The position numbers and the translations under genes were made by a program. From Caldicellulosiruptor danielii (GTDB lineage: Bacteria; Bacillota; Thermoanaerobacteria; Caldicellulosiruptorales; Caldicellulosiruptoraceae), in NCBI RefSeq assembly GCF_034343125.1, contig NZ_CP139957.1, forward strand, positions 1,978,001 through 2,042,000: DNA of 64,000 bases, given 5' to 3'. The notes beneath the pieces were generated by a model. The model was not told the DNA's origin. It was given only the letters and a program-made list of their open reading frames with translations, and ran no database searches. Within the stretch, counting starts at the first letter, position 1; every line of letters starts with the position of its first letter. Shown one piece after another: positions 48,791 to 54,718 of this stretch.

Positions 48791-49177
48791 TTAACAAATA
48801 CATTCAGATTGTTCTTCTTTATCCGAAAGTCTTACAATTTTGTTTTCATCATCCACAAACACAATCTTTGGCTTGTGATTATAATACTCTTCCATGGTAA
48901 GAAGACAGTACGCCATTATTATTATTTTATCGCCCTCCTGCACAAGGCGAGCTGCTGCTCCGTTTAGGCAAATTGTTCCACTTCCCTTTTCACCTTTTAT
49001 CACATAAGTTTCGAACCTCTCGCCGTTGTTTATATTCACAACCTGCACCTTTTCATTTTCAAATATTCCGGCTGCTTTCATCAAATCATCATCAATTGTG
49101 ATACTTCCGACATAGTTTAGATTTGCCTCTGTAACAGTTGCTCTGTGAATCTTAGACTTTAAAACCTCAATGAACAT
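48791..49177 (-). CDS. panD: Aspartate 1-decarboxylase
   Basis: 128 aa. Makes beta-alanine using a pyruvoyl group formed by cleavage before the Ser of YVGSITID (about residue 26). VTEANLNY and [17 protein letters not shown] are also conserved. It starts 5 bases after panC. Last gene of the operon. Confidence 0.95.
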
Positions 49178-49182
49178 CTTTG

Positions 49183-50031
49183 CTATTTCGCCTCCACCAC
49201 AATGTTGTCTATAAGTCTTGCCTTTCCAATAAAGACAGCAAGAGCTATGAGAACCTTTCCTTCAACCTTTGAGATTATCTCAAACGTCTCATTGTTCACA
49301 AATTCAATGTAATCAATCTCTGTGTACTTCTCTTTTAAAATCATCTCTTCCATAGCTTTTTTTATGGTTGATACATCCTTTTCGCCTTTTTCAATCATCT
49401 CTTTTGCCAAATTCAAAGCCCTGTACAAAACGGTTGCAGATTTTCTTTCCTCTTCAGAAAGATATACATTTCTTGAACTCATTGCAAGACCATCTTGTTC
49501 ACGGACAATCGGACATGGAATTATCTCAACATCAAGATTTAAATCTTTTACCATCTGCTTTATGACAGCAAGCTGCTGAGCATCCTTTTGTCCAAAGTAT
49601 GCTCTGTCCGGGTTTACAATATTAAACAGCTTTAATACCACTGTTGCGACACCGTCAAAATGACCCGGTCTTGACTTACCGCACATTATTTCTGTTATTT
49701 TTTTCACCGACACAACTGTTTTAAAATCTTCGGGATACATCTCTTTTACCGATGGATTAAATATATAGTCAACACCTTCTTTTTCAGCAAGTCTCTTATC
49801 TCTTTCAAAATCGCGTGGGTATCTGTCATAATCCTCATTTGGTCCAAATTGAATAGGGTTTACAAATATGCTCATAACGGTAATATCGTTTTGCTGTTTA
49901 GAAAACCTTACCAAGCTCAAATGCCCTTCGTGCAGATACCCCATTGTTGGAACAAAGCCTACTGATTTGCCTTCTTTTTTAAGCCTTTTTACAATCTCTT
50001 TCATTTCCTGAATCTTTTCCACAACAACCAT
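49183..50031 (-). CDS. panC: Pantothenate synthetase
   Basis: 282 aa. Joins pantoate and beta-alanine using ATP. The HIGH-like site is [44 protein letters not shown] and [10 protein letters not shown] are all present. Its ATG overlaps the panB stop by one base (TGATG), implying translational coupling. Confidence 0.95.
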
Positions 50032-50825
50032 CAGTAACTGTGCTCCTTTCCTGGAAATTTTTCTTTTTTGACCTCTTCAATATACCTTGTCACAGCATCT
50101 TTGATTATATTCCCCACTTCAGCATATCTTTTTACAAACTTTGGCTTGAAATCTTCATACATGCCAAGCATGTCATAGCACACAAGTACCTGACCATCAC
50201 AGTATGGTCCAGCACCTATACCAATTACAGGCACTCTTACACTCTCTTGAACCTGTTTTGCAACATGAGCTGGCACCTTTTCAAGCACAATTGCAAATAC
50301 CCCAGCTTTCTCAAGTTTTTTAGCATCTTCCACAAGTTTTTTTGCTTCAGCTTCCTCCTTTGCGCGAAGGTCATAGCCCCCAAAGATGTTGACAGACTGA
50401 GGTGTCAGTCCCAAATGTCCCATTACAGGTATCTGAGCTTTTATAACAGCTTCTATCTTATCATATACATCGTCGCAGCCTTCCATTTTGACTGCATAAG
50501 CCCCTGCACGAATTAACCTTCCCGCGTTTTTTACAGCATCTTCTGTTGTGGTGTGGTATGACAAAAACGGCATGTCAGCAACTACCATAGAATACTTTGC
50601 TCCTCTGCTAACTGCTCTAACATGGTGTTCCATATCATCCATTGTAACCGGAATTGTAGAGTCATAACCAAGTATCACCATACCGAGAGAGTCGCCAACA
50701 AGCAGGATATCTACGTAGCAGCTGTCAAATATCTTTGCGAATGTGTAGTCGTAAGCAGTGAGCATGGTTATCTTTTCGCCCTTTTGCTTTTTTTCAAACA
50801 GCGTCTTAGTTGTCACCTTGTTCAT
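50031..50825 (-). CDS. panB: 3-methyl-2-oxobutanoate hydroxymethyltransferase
   Basis: 264 aa from the ATG at 50825, behind TTAGGTGGTG, and not from a longer upstream frame. Makes ketopantoate. Motifs: [50 protein letters not shown] and a catalytic [16 protein letters not shown]. It starts 4 bases after the DUF2520 gene. Confidence 0.95.
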
Positions 50826-50829
50826 TTTT

Positions 50830-51669
50830 TCACCACCTAACAGAATTTGTAAATTGCTGAAGTTTTTCGTAGACATTTTTATCGCCTTTCTCAAGTACCA
50901 GATCTGCCGCAAGCATCAAAAGTTCTAAAAAAGCCGGTTTCTTCTCATTCGGCAAAGCATTGTAGTGTTTTTGAAGTGTCAAAACATCGCCTCTTGCGGC
51001 AGGTCCTGTCAAACAGTTAAGTCTATCCTTCAAAAAATTTTCAAGTGATGCAAAAGAAAGAGGCTTTATTATGGAAAAAATGACCTCATCTGCAAGCCCA
51101 ATTTTTTTGTAAAGCAAATACGAAAAGTTCAAAAGAGCTATAAGGTAATTTGAAGCAACTGTTGCTGCAAGATGATAAACTACTTTGTCTTCTTTTTTGA
51201 GCTCTATATATTTATTCCCTATTTTCTGCAAGATTATCTTAGCTGCCTTTTTCCCTTCTTCATCACCTTCTAAAGAAAACATCGCCTCTTTTAAAAACTG
51301 GACATCTTCAGGCTGCCCTCTGAGCGTCTGAATAGGGTGAAGAGAAAATTTTCCTCTGCATTCGGTCCTTATAGCATCAGAGGTCAGCGCACCTGATAAG
51401 TGTCCAATTACTTTTTGCGACAAATGCAGCGAATAAAGGTTTTTAGAAACTTCTTCTATGAATGTATCAGAAATAGCTATAAAAATCACATCAGAAGCCT
51501 CTAAAAGATCTTCAGGGTTTTCGAATACACGGGTTTTTGTCATAGAAGCAGCTTTTATGGCTTTTTCATACGTTCTGTTATAAAACCCTGTAATCTCAAG
51601 CCCATGATCTTTGAAATAAAACGCAAGAGAAATTCCGGCCTTAGATGCCCCATAAAAACCTATTTTCAC
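50830..51669 (-). CDS. Rossmann/DUF2520 dehydrogenase-like protein, candidate ketopantoate reductase
   Basis: 279 aa. The N-terminal Rossmann domain has [21 protein letters not shown], and the helical C-terminal domain (DUF2520) has HPIQTLRG and [20 protein letters not shown]. It belongs to the 6-phosphogluconate/ketopantoate dehydrogenase superfamily. It is the first gene of the operon, followed by panB, panC and panD, and no panE is in the window. Ketopantoate reductase (PanG-type) activity is a reasonable inference from position and fold. Confidence 0.7.
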
Positions 51670-51689
51670 TTCAAAATACCTCCATACAA

Positions 51690-51889
51690 AACTAAAAAAG
51701 GCAGAACAGAGTCTGCCTTTTATTTGCTTAAAAAAAAATTTTGTCTTCCAAACTCATATGCAGTCCCTGTTCTTTAAAAATCAGGGCAGCTTTTTAATTT
51801 TCAGTTTTATTAGTTTAAATCATTGTTAAGAAGTCTATAAAGTATGGCTCGACAATAATGTCGATGCCATCTTTTCATAATTAATTATA
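51690..51889 (-). promoter_or_regulatory. Promoter and attenuator-like leader of the pantothenate operon
   Basis: TATAAT at 51884-51889 (with TG one base upstream as an extended -10) starts a leader of about 200 bases. The leader begins with a strong hairpin, ATGGC-A-TCGACA / TGTCGA-GCCAT (51844-51870, one bulged A), then has CCCTG ... CAGGG, and ends with an intrinsic terminator (AAAGGCAGA/TCTGCCTTT plus T run, 51694-51721), directly before the GGAGG of the first gene. AGCTGCC in the middle could pair with the terminator's GGCAG arm. This is riboswitch-like architecture; it may belong to the known pan RNA motif. Confidence 0.6.
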
Positions 51890-51989
51890 CCACAACTTAG
51901 CAAAAAATATAGTGTTATTTTTTATATTTGAAAGGGTATTAATATGATTGAAAATCAAAAATTTAAAATAAATGAGAGGTGCAGTCCAA

Positions 51990-52508
51990 ATGAGAAACGA
52001 GAAAATCCTTGAGATGTTAAATGAACAATTAAACAGAGAACTATTCTCAGCATACTTTTATACAGCAATGGAAGCATATTTTGCTTCTCAAAATTTAGAT
52101 GGTTTTGCTCACTTCTTCATGGTCCAGACCAAAGAAGAGCTTGACCATGCAAGATTGATATTTGATTATATAAACAAAATAGGTGGAAGAGTAATTTTAA
52201 AAGAGTTAAAACAGCCAAAAATAGATTATTCTTCACCTACAGAAGTTTTTGAACTTGCACTTTCACACGAGCGGTTTATAACTTCTTCTATCCATGAGAT
52301 TGCAAAGGTTGCTTTGGAAGAAAAAGACCTTACCACACACAACTTTTTGCAGTGGTTTATAAACGAACAAGCTGAGGAAGAAGAAACTATGGACAAGATT
52401 TTAAGAAAGCTGAAATTTATAAAAGAAGACCCAAGCGGGCTTCTGTTTTTGGACAAGGAACTTTCAACAAGAGTGTACACACCGCCATCTATTCTGCAGG
52501 AAAATTAG
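51990..52508 (+). CDS. Ferritin
   Basis: 172 aa from the ATG at 51990 (AGAGGTG upstream). Ferroxidase ligands are recognisable in LNRELFSAYFYTAMEAYF (Glu), VQTKEELDHARLIFDYI (Glu and His) and INEQAEEEETMDKIL. Bacterial non-heme ferritin, stores iron as a 24-mer. Single gene. Confidence 0.92.
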   Translation: MRNEKILEMLNEQLNRELFSAYFYTAMEAYFASQNLDGFAHFFMVQTKEELDHARLIFDYINKIGGRVILKELKQPKIDYSSPTEVFELALSHERFITSSIHEIAKVALEEKDLTTHNFLQWFINEQAEEEETMDKILRKLKFIKEDPSGLLFLDKELSTRVYTPPSILQEN

Positions 52509-53021: not shown

Positions 53022-53109
53022 GCCGAGATGGTGGAATTGGCAGACACGCTACTTTGAGGGGGTAGTGGGCGTTATGCCCGTGCGAGTTCGAGTCTCGCTC
53101 TCGGCACCA
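53022..53109 (+). tRNA. tRNA-Leu, anticodon GAG
   Basis: Class II tRNA of 88 bases. Acceptor GCCGAGA/TCTCGGC, anticodon stem CTACT/GGTAG with loop TTGAGGG (anticodon GAG), a long variable arm GGGCGTTATGCCC, T loop TTCGAGT, CCA encoded. Confidence 0.93.
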
Positions 53110-53123
53110 ATTAAAAAGAAAAT

Positions 53124-53154
53124 AAGGCCCTAAGTAAAAGGGCTTTATTTTTTA
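53124..53154 (+). terminator. Terminator between two tRNA genes
   Basis: AAGGCCC ... GGGCTTT hairpin followed by ATTTTTT. Confidence 0.65.
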
Positions 53155-53172
53155 TGTAAAAACAAAAAATGC

Positions 53173-53249
53173 GCGCCCATAGCTCAATTGGATAGAGCAT
53201 CAGACTACGGATCTGAGGGTTGGGGGTTCGAGTCCTCCTGGGCGCGCCA
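53173..53249 (+). tRNA. tRNA-Arg, anticodon ACG; likely integration site
   Basis: Acceptor GCGCCCA/TGGGCGC, anticodon stem TCAGA/TCTGA with loop CTACGGA (anticodon ACG), T arm GGGGG-TTCGAGT-CCTCC, CCA encoded. The phage-like region starts directly after its 3' end, which is the classic attachment position for tyrosine-integrase elements. Confidence 0.93.
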
Positions 53250-53293
53250 GTTAAATCAAGGATTTTGGGGCTCCATTAAAAATAACCATACGA

Positions 53294-53315
53294 ATTTGAC
53301 ACCTATTTGACACCT
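53294..53315 (+). repeat. Tandem ATTTGACACCT repeat beside the tRNA
   Basis: Two adjacent perfect copies of the 11-mer ATTTGACACCT, 45 bases after tRNA-Arg. Short direct repeats in this position are typical of integrase arm-type sites near an att site. No integrase gene follows, so this is an inference. Nothing else is seen in 53250-53369. Confidence 0.45.
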
Positions 53316-53369
53316 ACAGAGAAATAACAAAAGTTGGTATTCAAGTTGTGATGTATATGCATGCAAAAG

Positions 53370-53585
53370 CTAAATTTTTACTTCTGGATTGTTTTTAACC
53401 CATTCCCAAAACAAATCTTTGGGTATTAGAATTCGACGTCCTATTTGAATTTTAGGAAACCCTTTAGAATGTACCAACTTAGAAGCAGACCTGTATCCAA
53501 CACCTAAAAGTTTTGCAATTTCATTTATTGTATATGTAGCTCTCTCAACTTCTTTGTTTTCTTTCTGTAAGTCTACTATTTCCAT
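53370..53585 (-). CDS. Excisionase-like helix-turn-helix protein
   Basis: 71 aa from the ATG at 53585, behind GGAGGTG. A single MerR/excisionase-type domain: YTINEIAKLLGVGYRSASKLV then GFPKIQIGRRILIPKDLFWEWVK. Such proteins are usually Xis or small regulators next to integrases. It is the closest gene to the tRNA, so an excisionase role fits, although the integrase is absent. Confidence 0.75.
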   Translation of the reverse strand: MEIVDLQKENKEVERATYTINEIAKLLGVGYRSASKLVHSKGFPKIQIGRRILIPKDLFWEWVKNNPEVKI

Positions 53586-53620
53586 AGCATTGCACACCTC
53601 CACAAGAAAATTTGAGCACA

Positions 53621-53655
53621 AAAAAAAGGAGCGCTGTTTCAAGCGCTCCTTTTCT
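53621..53655 (-). terminator. Terminator enclosing the primase-like gene's stop codon
   Basis: Stem AAAGGAGCGCT / AGCGCTCCTTT with the stop codon TGA (53639-53641) in its 6-base loop, followed on the minus strand by eight T. Confidence 0.8.
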
Positions 53656-54718
53656 GTGTCAGAAATAATAAGTAATCATCAATACCTTTGAACCTTGCAT
53701 CCCATTCCATCTGTTTGAACTTAAACCCATGTTCAGTAAGCATATTTTTGATTTTCTCAAGATTGTGTGCTACCTCCTTCTTTTCTTTGAAATCCATGTC
53801 GAATGCCAGTACTATCATCTTAGGCTTTATAGTTTGCAGAGTTTCCAGCAGTTGCTTATGGCATGAACTAACACCGGGCAAACCAATAAACATCTTCCCT
53901 GACAAATATGAGGCTACATCTGCTTTTAATGCTCCTTCTGTAACAAATACAATGCCATCTTCCATAGCACCAGTTATATGCAAATTCGCTTCCGCTGGTG
54001 TTCCATCATCCTTGCTACTGGACGAAGAAAACCAGCGGTACTTTGACAGTGCCGGTTCATCCATTCTAATCTGCAACCCTACTATTTGCTGTTGTAAATT
54101 TTTAACTGGAATAGCATAGCCTTGGTAGGGTATAAAGTCCCATTCACCAGTAGTTTTGTGTCTATAAAATCCGGGAATATTTTCAAGACTTAATCCTCTT
54201 TGCTGTAACATTTTGCAGATTAGAATGCGCCTTTCTTTCTCAACATTTAAAGATTTATAGCCTTTGATTTTTATGAATGTTTCTGATACTCCTCGTCTTA
54301 GAAGCTCTCTTTTGTGCTCTTCGTTAAGAGAAAGTAACTTCAGAAATTCTCTGTAGACTTTATCTCTTACTTCTGGTGGAGCAATATGCTTTTGTTGTGT
54401 TTCTTTGTTTTGAAGTTTATACTGCACATGGTACAACCTTTGTGAACCAGATGCTATCTCCTGTGCAAGTTCCCTATAGGCTTCTTTTGTGTCTTGATTG
54501 GTTAGTATCGCATATAACTGCAACGCATTGCCCTGTCTGCCACACTTGTGGCATATGAATGTGTTCTTTAAAATGTTGATATAAAGATGACCTTCACGCC
54601 TGTGTGGTTCGTCACACCAAGGACATAGACAGTTTAATTCATATCCACGTTGCTTCAAAACATTTATCCTTACTCTATCAAGCACGTCTTGCATTGTGAT
54701 GTCTATTAACTCTTTCAT
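53639..54718 (-). CDS. CHC2 zinc finger / Toprim primase-like protein
   Basis: 359 aa. The N-terminal zinc finger is LNCLCPWCDEPHRREG ... FICHKCGRQGNA. A Toprim domain at about residues 245-340 has the Glu in VFVTEGALKADVA and the DxD in MIVLAFDMDFKE (DUF3854-like). This is a DNA primase-type protein of a phage or mobile element, without the helicase domain. ATG behind AAAGGGG. Its leader is exceptionally long and structured, and its stop lies inside a terminator hairpin. Confidence 0.8.
   Translation of the reverse strand: MKELIDITMQDVLDRVRINVLKQRGYELNCLCPWCDEPHRREGHLYINILKNTFICHKCGRQGNALQLYAILTNQDTKEAYRELAQEIASGSQRLYHVQYKLQNKETQQKHIAPPEVRDKVYREFLKLLSLNEEHKRELLRRGVSETFIKIKGYKSLNVEKERRILICKMLQQRGLSLENIPGFYRHKTTGEWDFIPYQGYAIPVKNLQQQIVGLQIRMDEPALSKYRWFSSSSSKDDGTPAEANLHITGAMEDGIVFVTEGALKADVASYLSGKMFIGLPGVSSCHKQLLETLQTIKPKMIVLAFDMDFKEKKEVAHNLEKIKNMLTEHGFKFKQMEWDARFKGIDDYLLFLTQKRSA

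What the first reader, a model, noticed from the sequence alone, without database searches (positions are those of the whole stretch)
51690..51889. Attenuator-like leader in front of the pantothenate operon
A 200-base leader starts with a bulged hairpin (51844-51870), has a possible antiterminator (AGCTGCC), and ends with a complete terminator directly before the ribosome site. The operon makes pantothenate. A known RNA class, the pan motif, lies upstream of panB operons in Firmicutes and has hairpins with bulged A residues. Here the first gene is a DUF2520 gene. It may be that motif or a distinct regulator.
Basis: partly seen in the sequence, partly recalled or inferred. Interest (0 to 1): 0.6.

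Follow-up and report, generated by a model that had tools for sequence, protein, structure and literature searches.

The report
Pan RNA attenuator before pantothenate operon
The leader in front of this vitamin B5 operon is a member of a known but unsolved RNA class, the pan motif; comparison of 157 relatives suggests that it switches a transcription terminator through a conserved competing helix and that it senses the coenzyme A end of the pathway.

Summary
The minus-strand leader 51873-51757 is a full-length hit to Rfam RF01749, the pan motif (44.7 bits, cut-off 36.2). It has both bulged-A hairpins and an intrinsic terminator (51721-51696), and precedes DUF2520-panB-panC-panD. The class is known (Weinberg 2010); no sensed signal is reported in the papers I could search.

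New here, from 157 pan loci: (1) The second hairpin's 3' strand plus its tail pairs with the terminator's 5' arm. This antiterminator beats shuffled (p 8e-10) and swapped (p 7e-7) controls over 49 families. In the window's genus both strands have changed together. (2) Pan RNAs also precede PanT-CoaX, BioY/BirA-PanT-CoaX, PanS-panC-panD and OPT-CoaW operons. Where PanT comes first, the tail is usually the Shine-Dalgarno sequence, without a terminator. (3) Six genomes with pan RNAs before uptake/kinase genes lack PanB, PanC, PanD and DUF2520.

So the signal is probably not pantoate or beta-alanine, and the sensor is none of those enzymes; CoA or a CoA-pathway product fits best. Whether RNA or protein senses it is open.

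The parts
51884..51889 (-). -10 box TATAAT, preceded by TGG (extended -10); transcription start expected near 51878-51876
   Evidence: Sequence read directly; GTGGTATAAT is kept in the genus relatives. Promoter not tested; no good -35 box seen.
51839..51874 (-). pan hairpin P1, with one bulged A on each strand
   Evidence: Rfam alignment; fold -18.3 kcal/mol
51760..51790 (-). pan hairpin P2, with bulged A residues; competes with the antiterminator
   Evidence: Rfam alignment; fold -8.7 kcal/mol
51760..51772 (-). Antiterminator strand 1: 3' strand of P2, GAACAGGGACTGC
   Evidence: Duplex with 51717-51704, -17.6 kcal/mol; family-wide test
51704..51717 (-). Antiterminator strand 2: terminator 5' arm and loop, GGCAGACTCTGTTC
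   Evidence: loop CTCTGT identical in all 12 members of the genus
51696..51721 (-). Intrinsic terminator AAAAGGCAGA-CTCTGT-TCTGCCTTTT, followed by T-rich sequence
   Evidence: fold -12.4 kcal/mol
51679..51683 (-). Ribosome binding site GGAGG
   Evidence: Sequence
50830..51669 (-). DUF2520 protein with Rossmann N-terminal domain; presumed ketopantoate reductase
   Evidence: PF10728 E 1.3e-28, F420_oxidored and NAD_binding_2; no PanE-type PF08546 in this genome; DUF2520 is also the first gene of many pan operons
50031..50822 (-). panB, ketopantoate hydroxymethyltransferase
   Evidence: PF02548 E 1.1e-115; TIGR00222
49183..50031 (-). panC, pantoate-beta-alanine ligase
   Evidence: PF02569 E 9.8e-118
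48791..49177 (-). panD, aspartate decarboxylase
   Evidence: PF02261 E 2.9e-56

Best explanation
The leader is a pan-motif (RF01749) transcription attenuator that represses the pantothenate operon when the CoA pathway is replete. While RNA polymerase is between the terminator loop and the terminator 3' arm, two folds compete for the 3' strand of P2. If P2 is not held, that strand (51772-51760) pairs with the terminator 5' arm and loop (51717-51704), the terminator is delayed or blocked, and the operon is read. If a factor recognises the two bulged-A hairpins and holds P2 closed, the terminator arm is free, the terminator forms, and transcription stops. Shown here: class membership, the elements, the conserved and compensated antiterminator complementarity, and the set of operons carrying the RNA. 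Inferred: the direction (bound = OFF), and that the signal is CoA or a CoA-pathway product. Not decided: whether the RNA binds the signal itself or a protein (probably dimeric) does.
For: Rfam hit 44.7 bits against a cut-off of 36.2, full length 1-92. Terminator. Antiterminator -17.6 kcal/mol against -8.7 for P2 alone; the minimum-energy fold of the growing transcript changes to the antiterminator when the 3' end is at 51706-51700 and to P2 plus terminator once the terminator is complete. Across 135 loci in 49 families, P2 3' strand x terminator 5' half: own -11.6 vs dinucleotide shuffles -9.4 (p 8e-10) vs terminators swapped between families -9.7 (p 7e-7). Window: -13.9 vs -6.3 and -6.6, 0 of 100 as good in each. 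In the usual form the tail ACGGAAGG faces CCTTCCGT; in the window's genus both sides have changed (tail GACTGCATA; arm GGCAGA plus loop CTCTGT) and pairing is kept; the sister genus keeps it with another loop. Partial transcripts have 10.6 expected antiterminator pairs in the window, complete ones 0.3; 28 of 49 families reach 5 or more in the partial transcript. Regulon: pan RNAs in front of PanT-CoaX, BirA/BioY-PanT-CoaX, PanS-panC-panD, OPT-CoaW. Pan-bearing genomes without panB, panC, panD or DUF2520.
Against: No expression, termination or binding data. In complete transcripts the terminator state is the more stable (about -21 vs -18 kcal/mol by summing elements), so readthrough must be kinetic. 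In some families the antiterminator is weak or absent by this measure (e.g. L048, L104, L068, L133). The direction of control is inferred from mutual exclusion only.
Confidence: 0.75

Rival explanations
1. Protein sensor (a version of the best explanation): the pan hairpins are a binding site for an unlinked, probably dimeric RNA-binding protein that reports CoA status; the RNA itself binds no metabolite.
For: Tandem hairpins of simple form with conserved bulged A residues; Weinberg et al. 2010 suggested a dimeric protein site (PMC2864571). In the columns I tabulated, the near-invariant positions lie at and next to bulged A residues: A9 156/157, G84 and A85 155/157. Motif length varies from 71 to 136 bases, mostly in linker and loops.
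Against: No candidate protein found. PanB, PanC, PanD and DUF2520 are absent from several pan-bearing genomes, so the protein would have to be encoded elsewhere.
Confidence: 0.5
2. Riboswitch (the other version of the best explanation): the pan RNA directly binds CoA or another compound at or after pantothenate in the CoA pathway.
For: The RNA lies before synthesis, uptake and kinase genes alike, works with two kinds of output (terminator or ribosome site), and occurs in genomes with no pantothenate synthesis, as expected of a self-contained sensor.
Against: Each hairpin has few conserved bases; no ligand reported since 2010 in the papers I could search.
Confidence: 0.3
3. The antiterminator uses the 5' strand of P2 (AGCTGCC with GGCAG).
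For: In this genus CTGCC does complement GGCAG: -9.7 kcal/mol, against a shuffle mean of -6.4.
Against: Weaker than the 3' strand helix (-13.9 in the same test) and without family-wide support (p 0.46 and 0.12).
Confidence: 0.07
4. Constitutive partial terminator plus a chance resemblance to the pan motif; no regulated switch.
For: No experimental data exist for this leader.
Against: Score above cut-off, position in front of panBCD, conservation in 12 of 12 genomes of the genus, compensated antiterminator.
Confidence: 0.03

Closest known systems
pan motif RNA (Rfam RF01749; Weinberg et al. 2010, PMC2864571)
   Same: Two tandem hairpins with bulged A residues, in front of panB/panC/panD operons; covariance-model score above the curated cut-off
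   Different: Longer linker (117-base hit for a 92-position model); the usual tail GAaGG is replaced by CTGCATA, together with a rewritten terminator arm and loop; terminator further downstream (+35) than in most relatives
OFF-type terminator/antiterminator riboswitches and protein-dependent attenuators (works like; general knowledge)
   Same: Mutually exclusive terminator and antiterminator, with the sensor hairpin sharing a strand with the antiterminator
   Different: Signal unknown; sensor is two small hairpins of one kind rather than a large aptamer or a single protein site

Membership tests
pan motif RF01749 | Covariance-model score at or above the gathering cut-off (36.2 bits), full length | tested here: met
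   44.7 bits, positions 1-92 of 92, not truncated
pan motif RF01749 | Stems interrupted by highly conserved bulged A residues | tested here: met
   Alignment: bulged A on both strands of both hairpins; one U-U mismatch in the basal part of P2
pan motif RF01749 | Hairpins in tandem | tested here: met
   P1 51874-51839 and P2 51790-51760
pan motif RF01749 | Upstream of panB, panC or panD operons | tested here: met
   DUF2520-panB-panC-panD
Metabolite riboswitch | Direct, selective ligand binding that changes expression | not testable with these tools
   Only gene-context evidence for the kind of signal
Transcription attenuator | Terminator with a mutually exclusive antiterminator | tested here: met
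   By sequence and energy only; function not measured

The most novel reading that the evidence does not exclude
Pan RNAs are the long-missing CoA-sensing riboswitch class (CoA or a CoA-pathway compound bound directly), controlling pantothenate synthesis, uptake and phosphorylation through two interchangeable output devices.
Probability: 0.28. Interest if true: 0.9.

Novelty: new member of a known kind. Interest (0 to 1): 0.5.

Why it matters
CoA is one of the major cofactors for which no riboswitch is known (Breaker 2022, PMC9971707). The pan motif has been an orphan since 2010 and was described with biosynthetic genes only. The gene contexts found here (pantothenate kinases, PanT, PanS, an OPT transporter, genomes with no pantothenate synthesis) narrow the candidate signals to pantothenate and what lies after it. 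The antiterminator gives precise changes with which to test the switch. The regulon also nominates an OPT-family protein as a pantothenate or pantetheine importer, and supports DUF2520 as the ketopantoate reductase of organisms without PanE.

Tried and rejected
P2 5' strand (AGCTGCC) as the family's antiterminator: no signal beyond shuffles. Operon-encoded enzymes (PanB, PanC, PanD, DUF2520) as the sensing protein, and pantoate or beta-alanine as the signal: several pan-bearing genomes lack these genes. Other Rfam families in the leader: only a chance-level snoRNA match on the other strand. Literature search for experiments on pan RNAs found only the 2010 description and one annotation table.

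Full report
Observation. On the minus strand, 51889-51669 holds a TATAAT box (51889-51884, preceded by TGG), a bulged hairpin P1 (51874-51839), a second bulged hairpin P2 (51790-51760), a terminator (51721-51696), GGAGG (51683-51679) and a GTG start at 51669. The leader folds at -49.8 kcal/mol against -30.6 +/- 3.9 for 200 dinucleotide shuffles. Rfam reports RF01749, the pan motif, at 51873-51757, 44.7 bits, full length. Downstream are DUF2520, panB, panC and panD. The genome has one pan RNA, and all 11 other genomes of the genus examined have one.

Structure. The alignment shows the defining bulged A residues in both hairpins. The linker between P1 and P2 is longer than in the model.

Antiterminator. 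I collected 157 pan loci and located terminators by a scan that does not look at the motif. In most of the phylum the tail of P2 reads ACGGAAGG, GACGGGAGA or GACAGAGGG, and the terminator's 5' arm reads CCTTCCG or CCTTCTG. Duplex energies between the P2 3' strand plus tail and the terminator 5' half were compared with dinucleotide shuffles of the arm and with arms taken from other families. Averaged by family (49 families): own -11.6, shuffled -9.4, swapped -9.7 kcal/mol; Wilcoxon p 8e-10 and 7e-7. The P2 5' strand gave -6.8, -6.8 and -6.1 (p 0.46 and 0.12). The swap control indicates that tail and arm change together and do not merely share a fixed word. Pairs of several kinds occur at model positions 87, 89 and 90; that table is built from predicted duplexes and is illustrative only. 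Families are not fully independent, so the p-values are approximate.

The window. Its genus has lost both GGAAGG and CCTTCC. Instead GAACAGGG-A-CTGC (51772-51760) pairs with GCAG-A-CTCTGTTC (within 51717-51704): 12 pairs with an A-A mismatch, -17.6 kcal/mol. In the standard test it scores -13.9 against -6.3 (shuffled) and -6.6 (swapped), none of 100 as good. The terminator loop CTCTGT, which takes part in this helix, is identical in all genus members. Folding the growing transcript, the antiterminator becomes the best fold when the 3' end is at 51706-51700; once the terminator is complete, P2 plus terminator wins. Ensemble calculations agree: 10.6 expected antiterminator pairs in the partial and 0.3 in the complete transcript. 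So the decision is kinetic, and anything that holds P2 closed for that moment should favour termination. That direction is inference.

Regulon. Downstream genes, by Pfam/NCBIfam profile for representatives and by phmmer for the rest: DUF2520-panB and longer pan operons; panC-panD; ECF S components (taken as PanT from context; Pfam says only ECF_trnsprt) with CoaX, type III pantothenate kinase; BirA-PanT-CoaX and BioY-PanT-CoaX; a BASS transporter closest to PanS (300.7 bits, below that model's 400-bit cut-off) with panC and panD; an OPT transporter with a type II pantothenate kinase. The 2010 paper's text lists only panB, panC and aspartate decarboxylase operons (its supplement could not be read). 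In most loci where PanT is the first gene (L038, L039, L041, L042, L049, L134, L138, L140) the motif ends in or runs straight into a GGAGG-like ribosome site and there is no good terminator; L149 has a terminator instead. This suggests translation control there. Start codons of L134, L138 and L140 are unclear.

What the signal can be. G387, G351, G070, G371, G338 and G031 carry a pan RNA in front of uptake or kinase genes and show no PanB, PanC, PanD or DUF2520 in near-complete genomes. G257 also lacks the enzymes; its operon was not read. Hence none of these enzymes can be the general sensor, and pantoate, ketopantoate and beta-alanine made by the pathway are unlikely signals. Control of the kinase that consumes pantothenate argues for a product after pantothenate, most simply CoA. 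This is an argument from gene context, not a measurement.

Known and new. The RNA class is known; membership is established by the model. No paper in the searched library reports a ligand or protein for it, and a 2022 review lists CoA as a cofactor without a riboswitch. New here, as far as the library shows, are the antiterminator, the rewired version in this genus, and the kinase/transporter regulon. Subscription papers and supplements were not searchable.

DUF2520. The window genome and the seven others tested lack the PanE C-terminal domain PF08546, while DUF2520, with a Rossmann N-terminus, stands first in the operon. It is therefore the likely ketopantoate reductase. IlvC-type reductases remain possible, since IlvC contributes in B. 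subtilis (PMC11487621).

Noticed in passing
L101, L120, L122: An OPT-family transporter gene directly followed by a type II pantothenate kinase, under a pan RNA; predicts an OPT importer of pantothenate or pantetheine in genomes such as G338 that lack pantothenate synthesis.
   Followed up: partly
L045, L092, L111, L063, L118, L109: Biotin genes (BioY or BirA) share pan-RNA operons with PanT and, where the locus reaches far enough, CoaX, so biotin and CoA supply may be co-regulated.
   Followed up: partly
L082, L084, L088, L117, L135, L151: PanS-like BASS transporter with panC (and panD in three) under a pan RNA: the pantoate salvage arrangement described by Rodionov et al. 2019 (PMC6593275), here with its likely regulator.
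   Followed up: partly
L043 (pan motif at G038:C110:69692-69787, minus strand): A 54.5-bit pan motif with terminator in front of no recognised gene; the short following frame has a CPKC motif and no Pfam match.
   Followed up: no
L049: The ECF S-component frame after the pan RNA of G031 seems interrupted; possibly decaying.
   Followed up: no
window 53022-54718: Two tRNA genes next to an HTH_17 gene and a CHC2-zinc-finger/DUF3854 primase-like gene on the other strand: may be the end of an element integrated beside tRNAs.
   Followed up: no
window 51972-52508 (+): A ferritin-like gene diverges from the pan leader; the intergenic stretch (about 95 bases from its start to the -10 box) must hold both promoters.
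   Followed up: no
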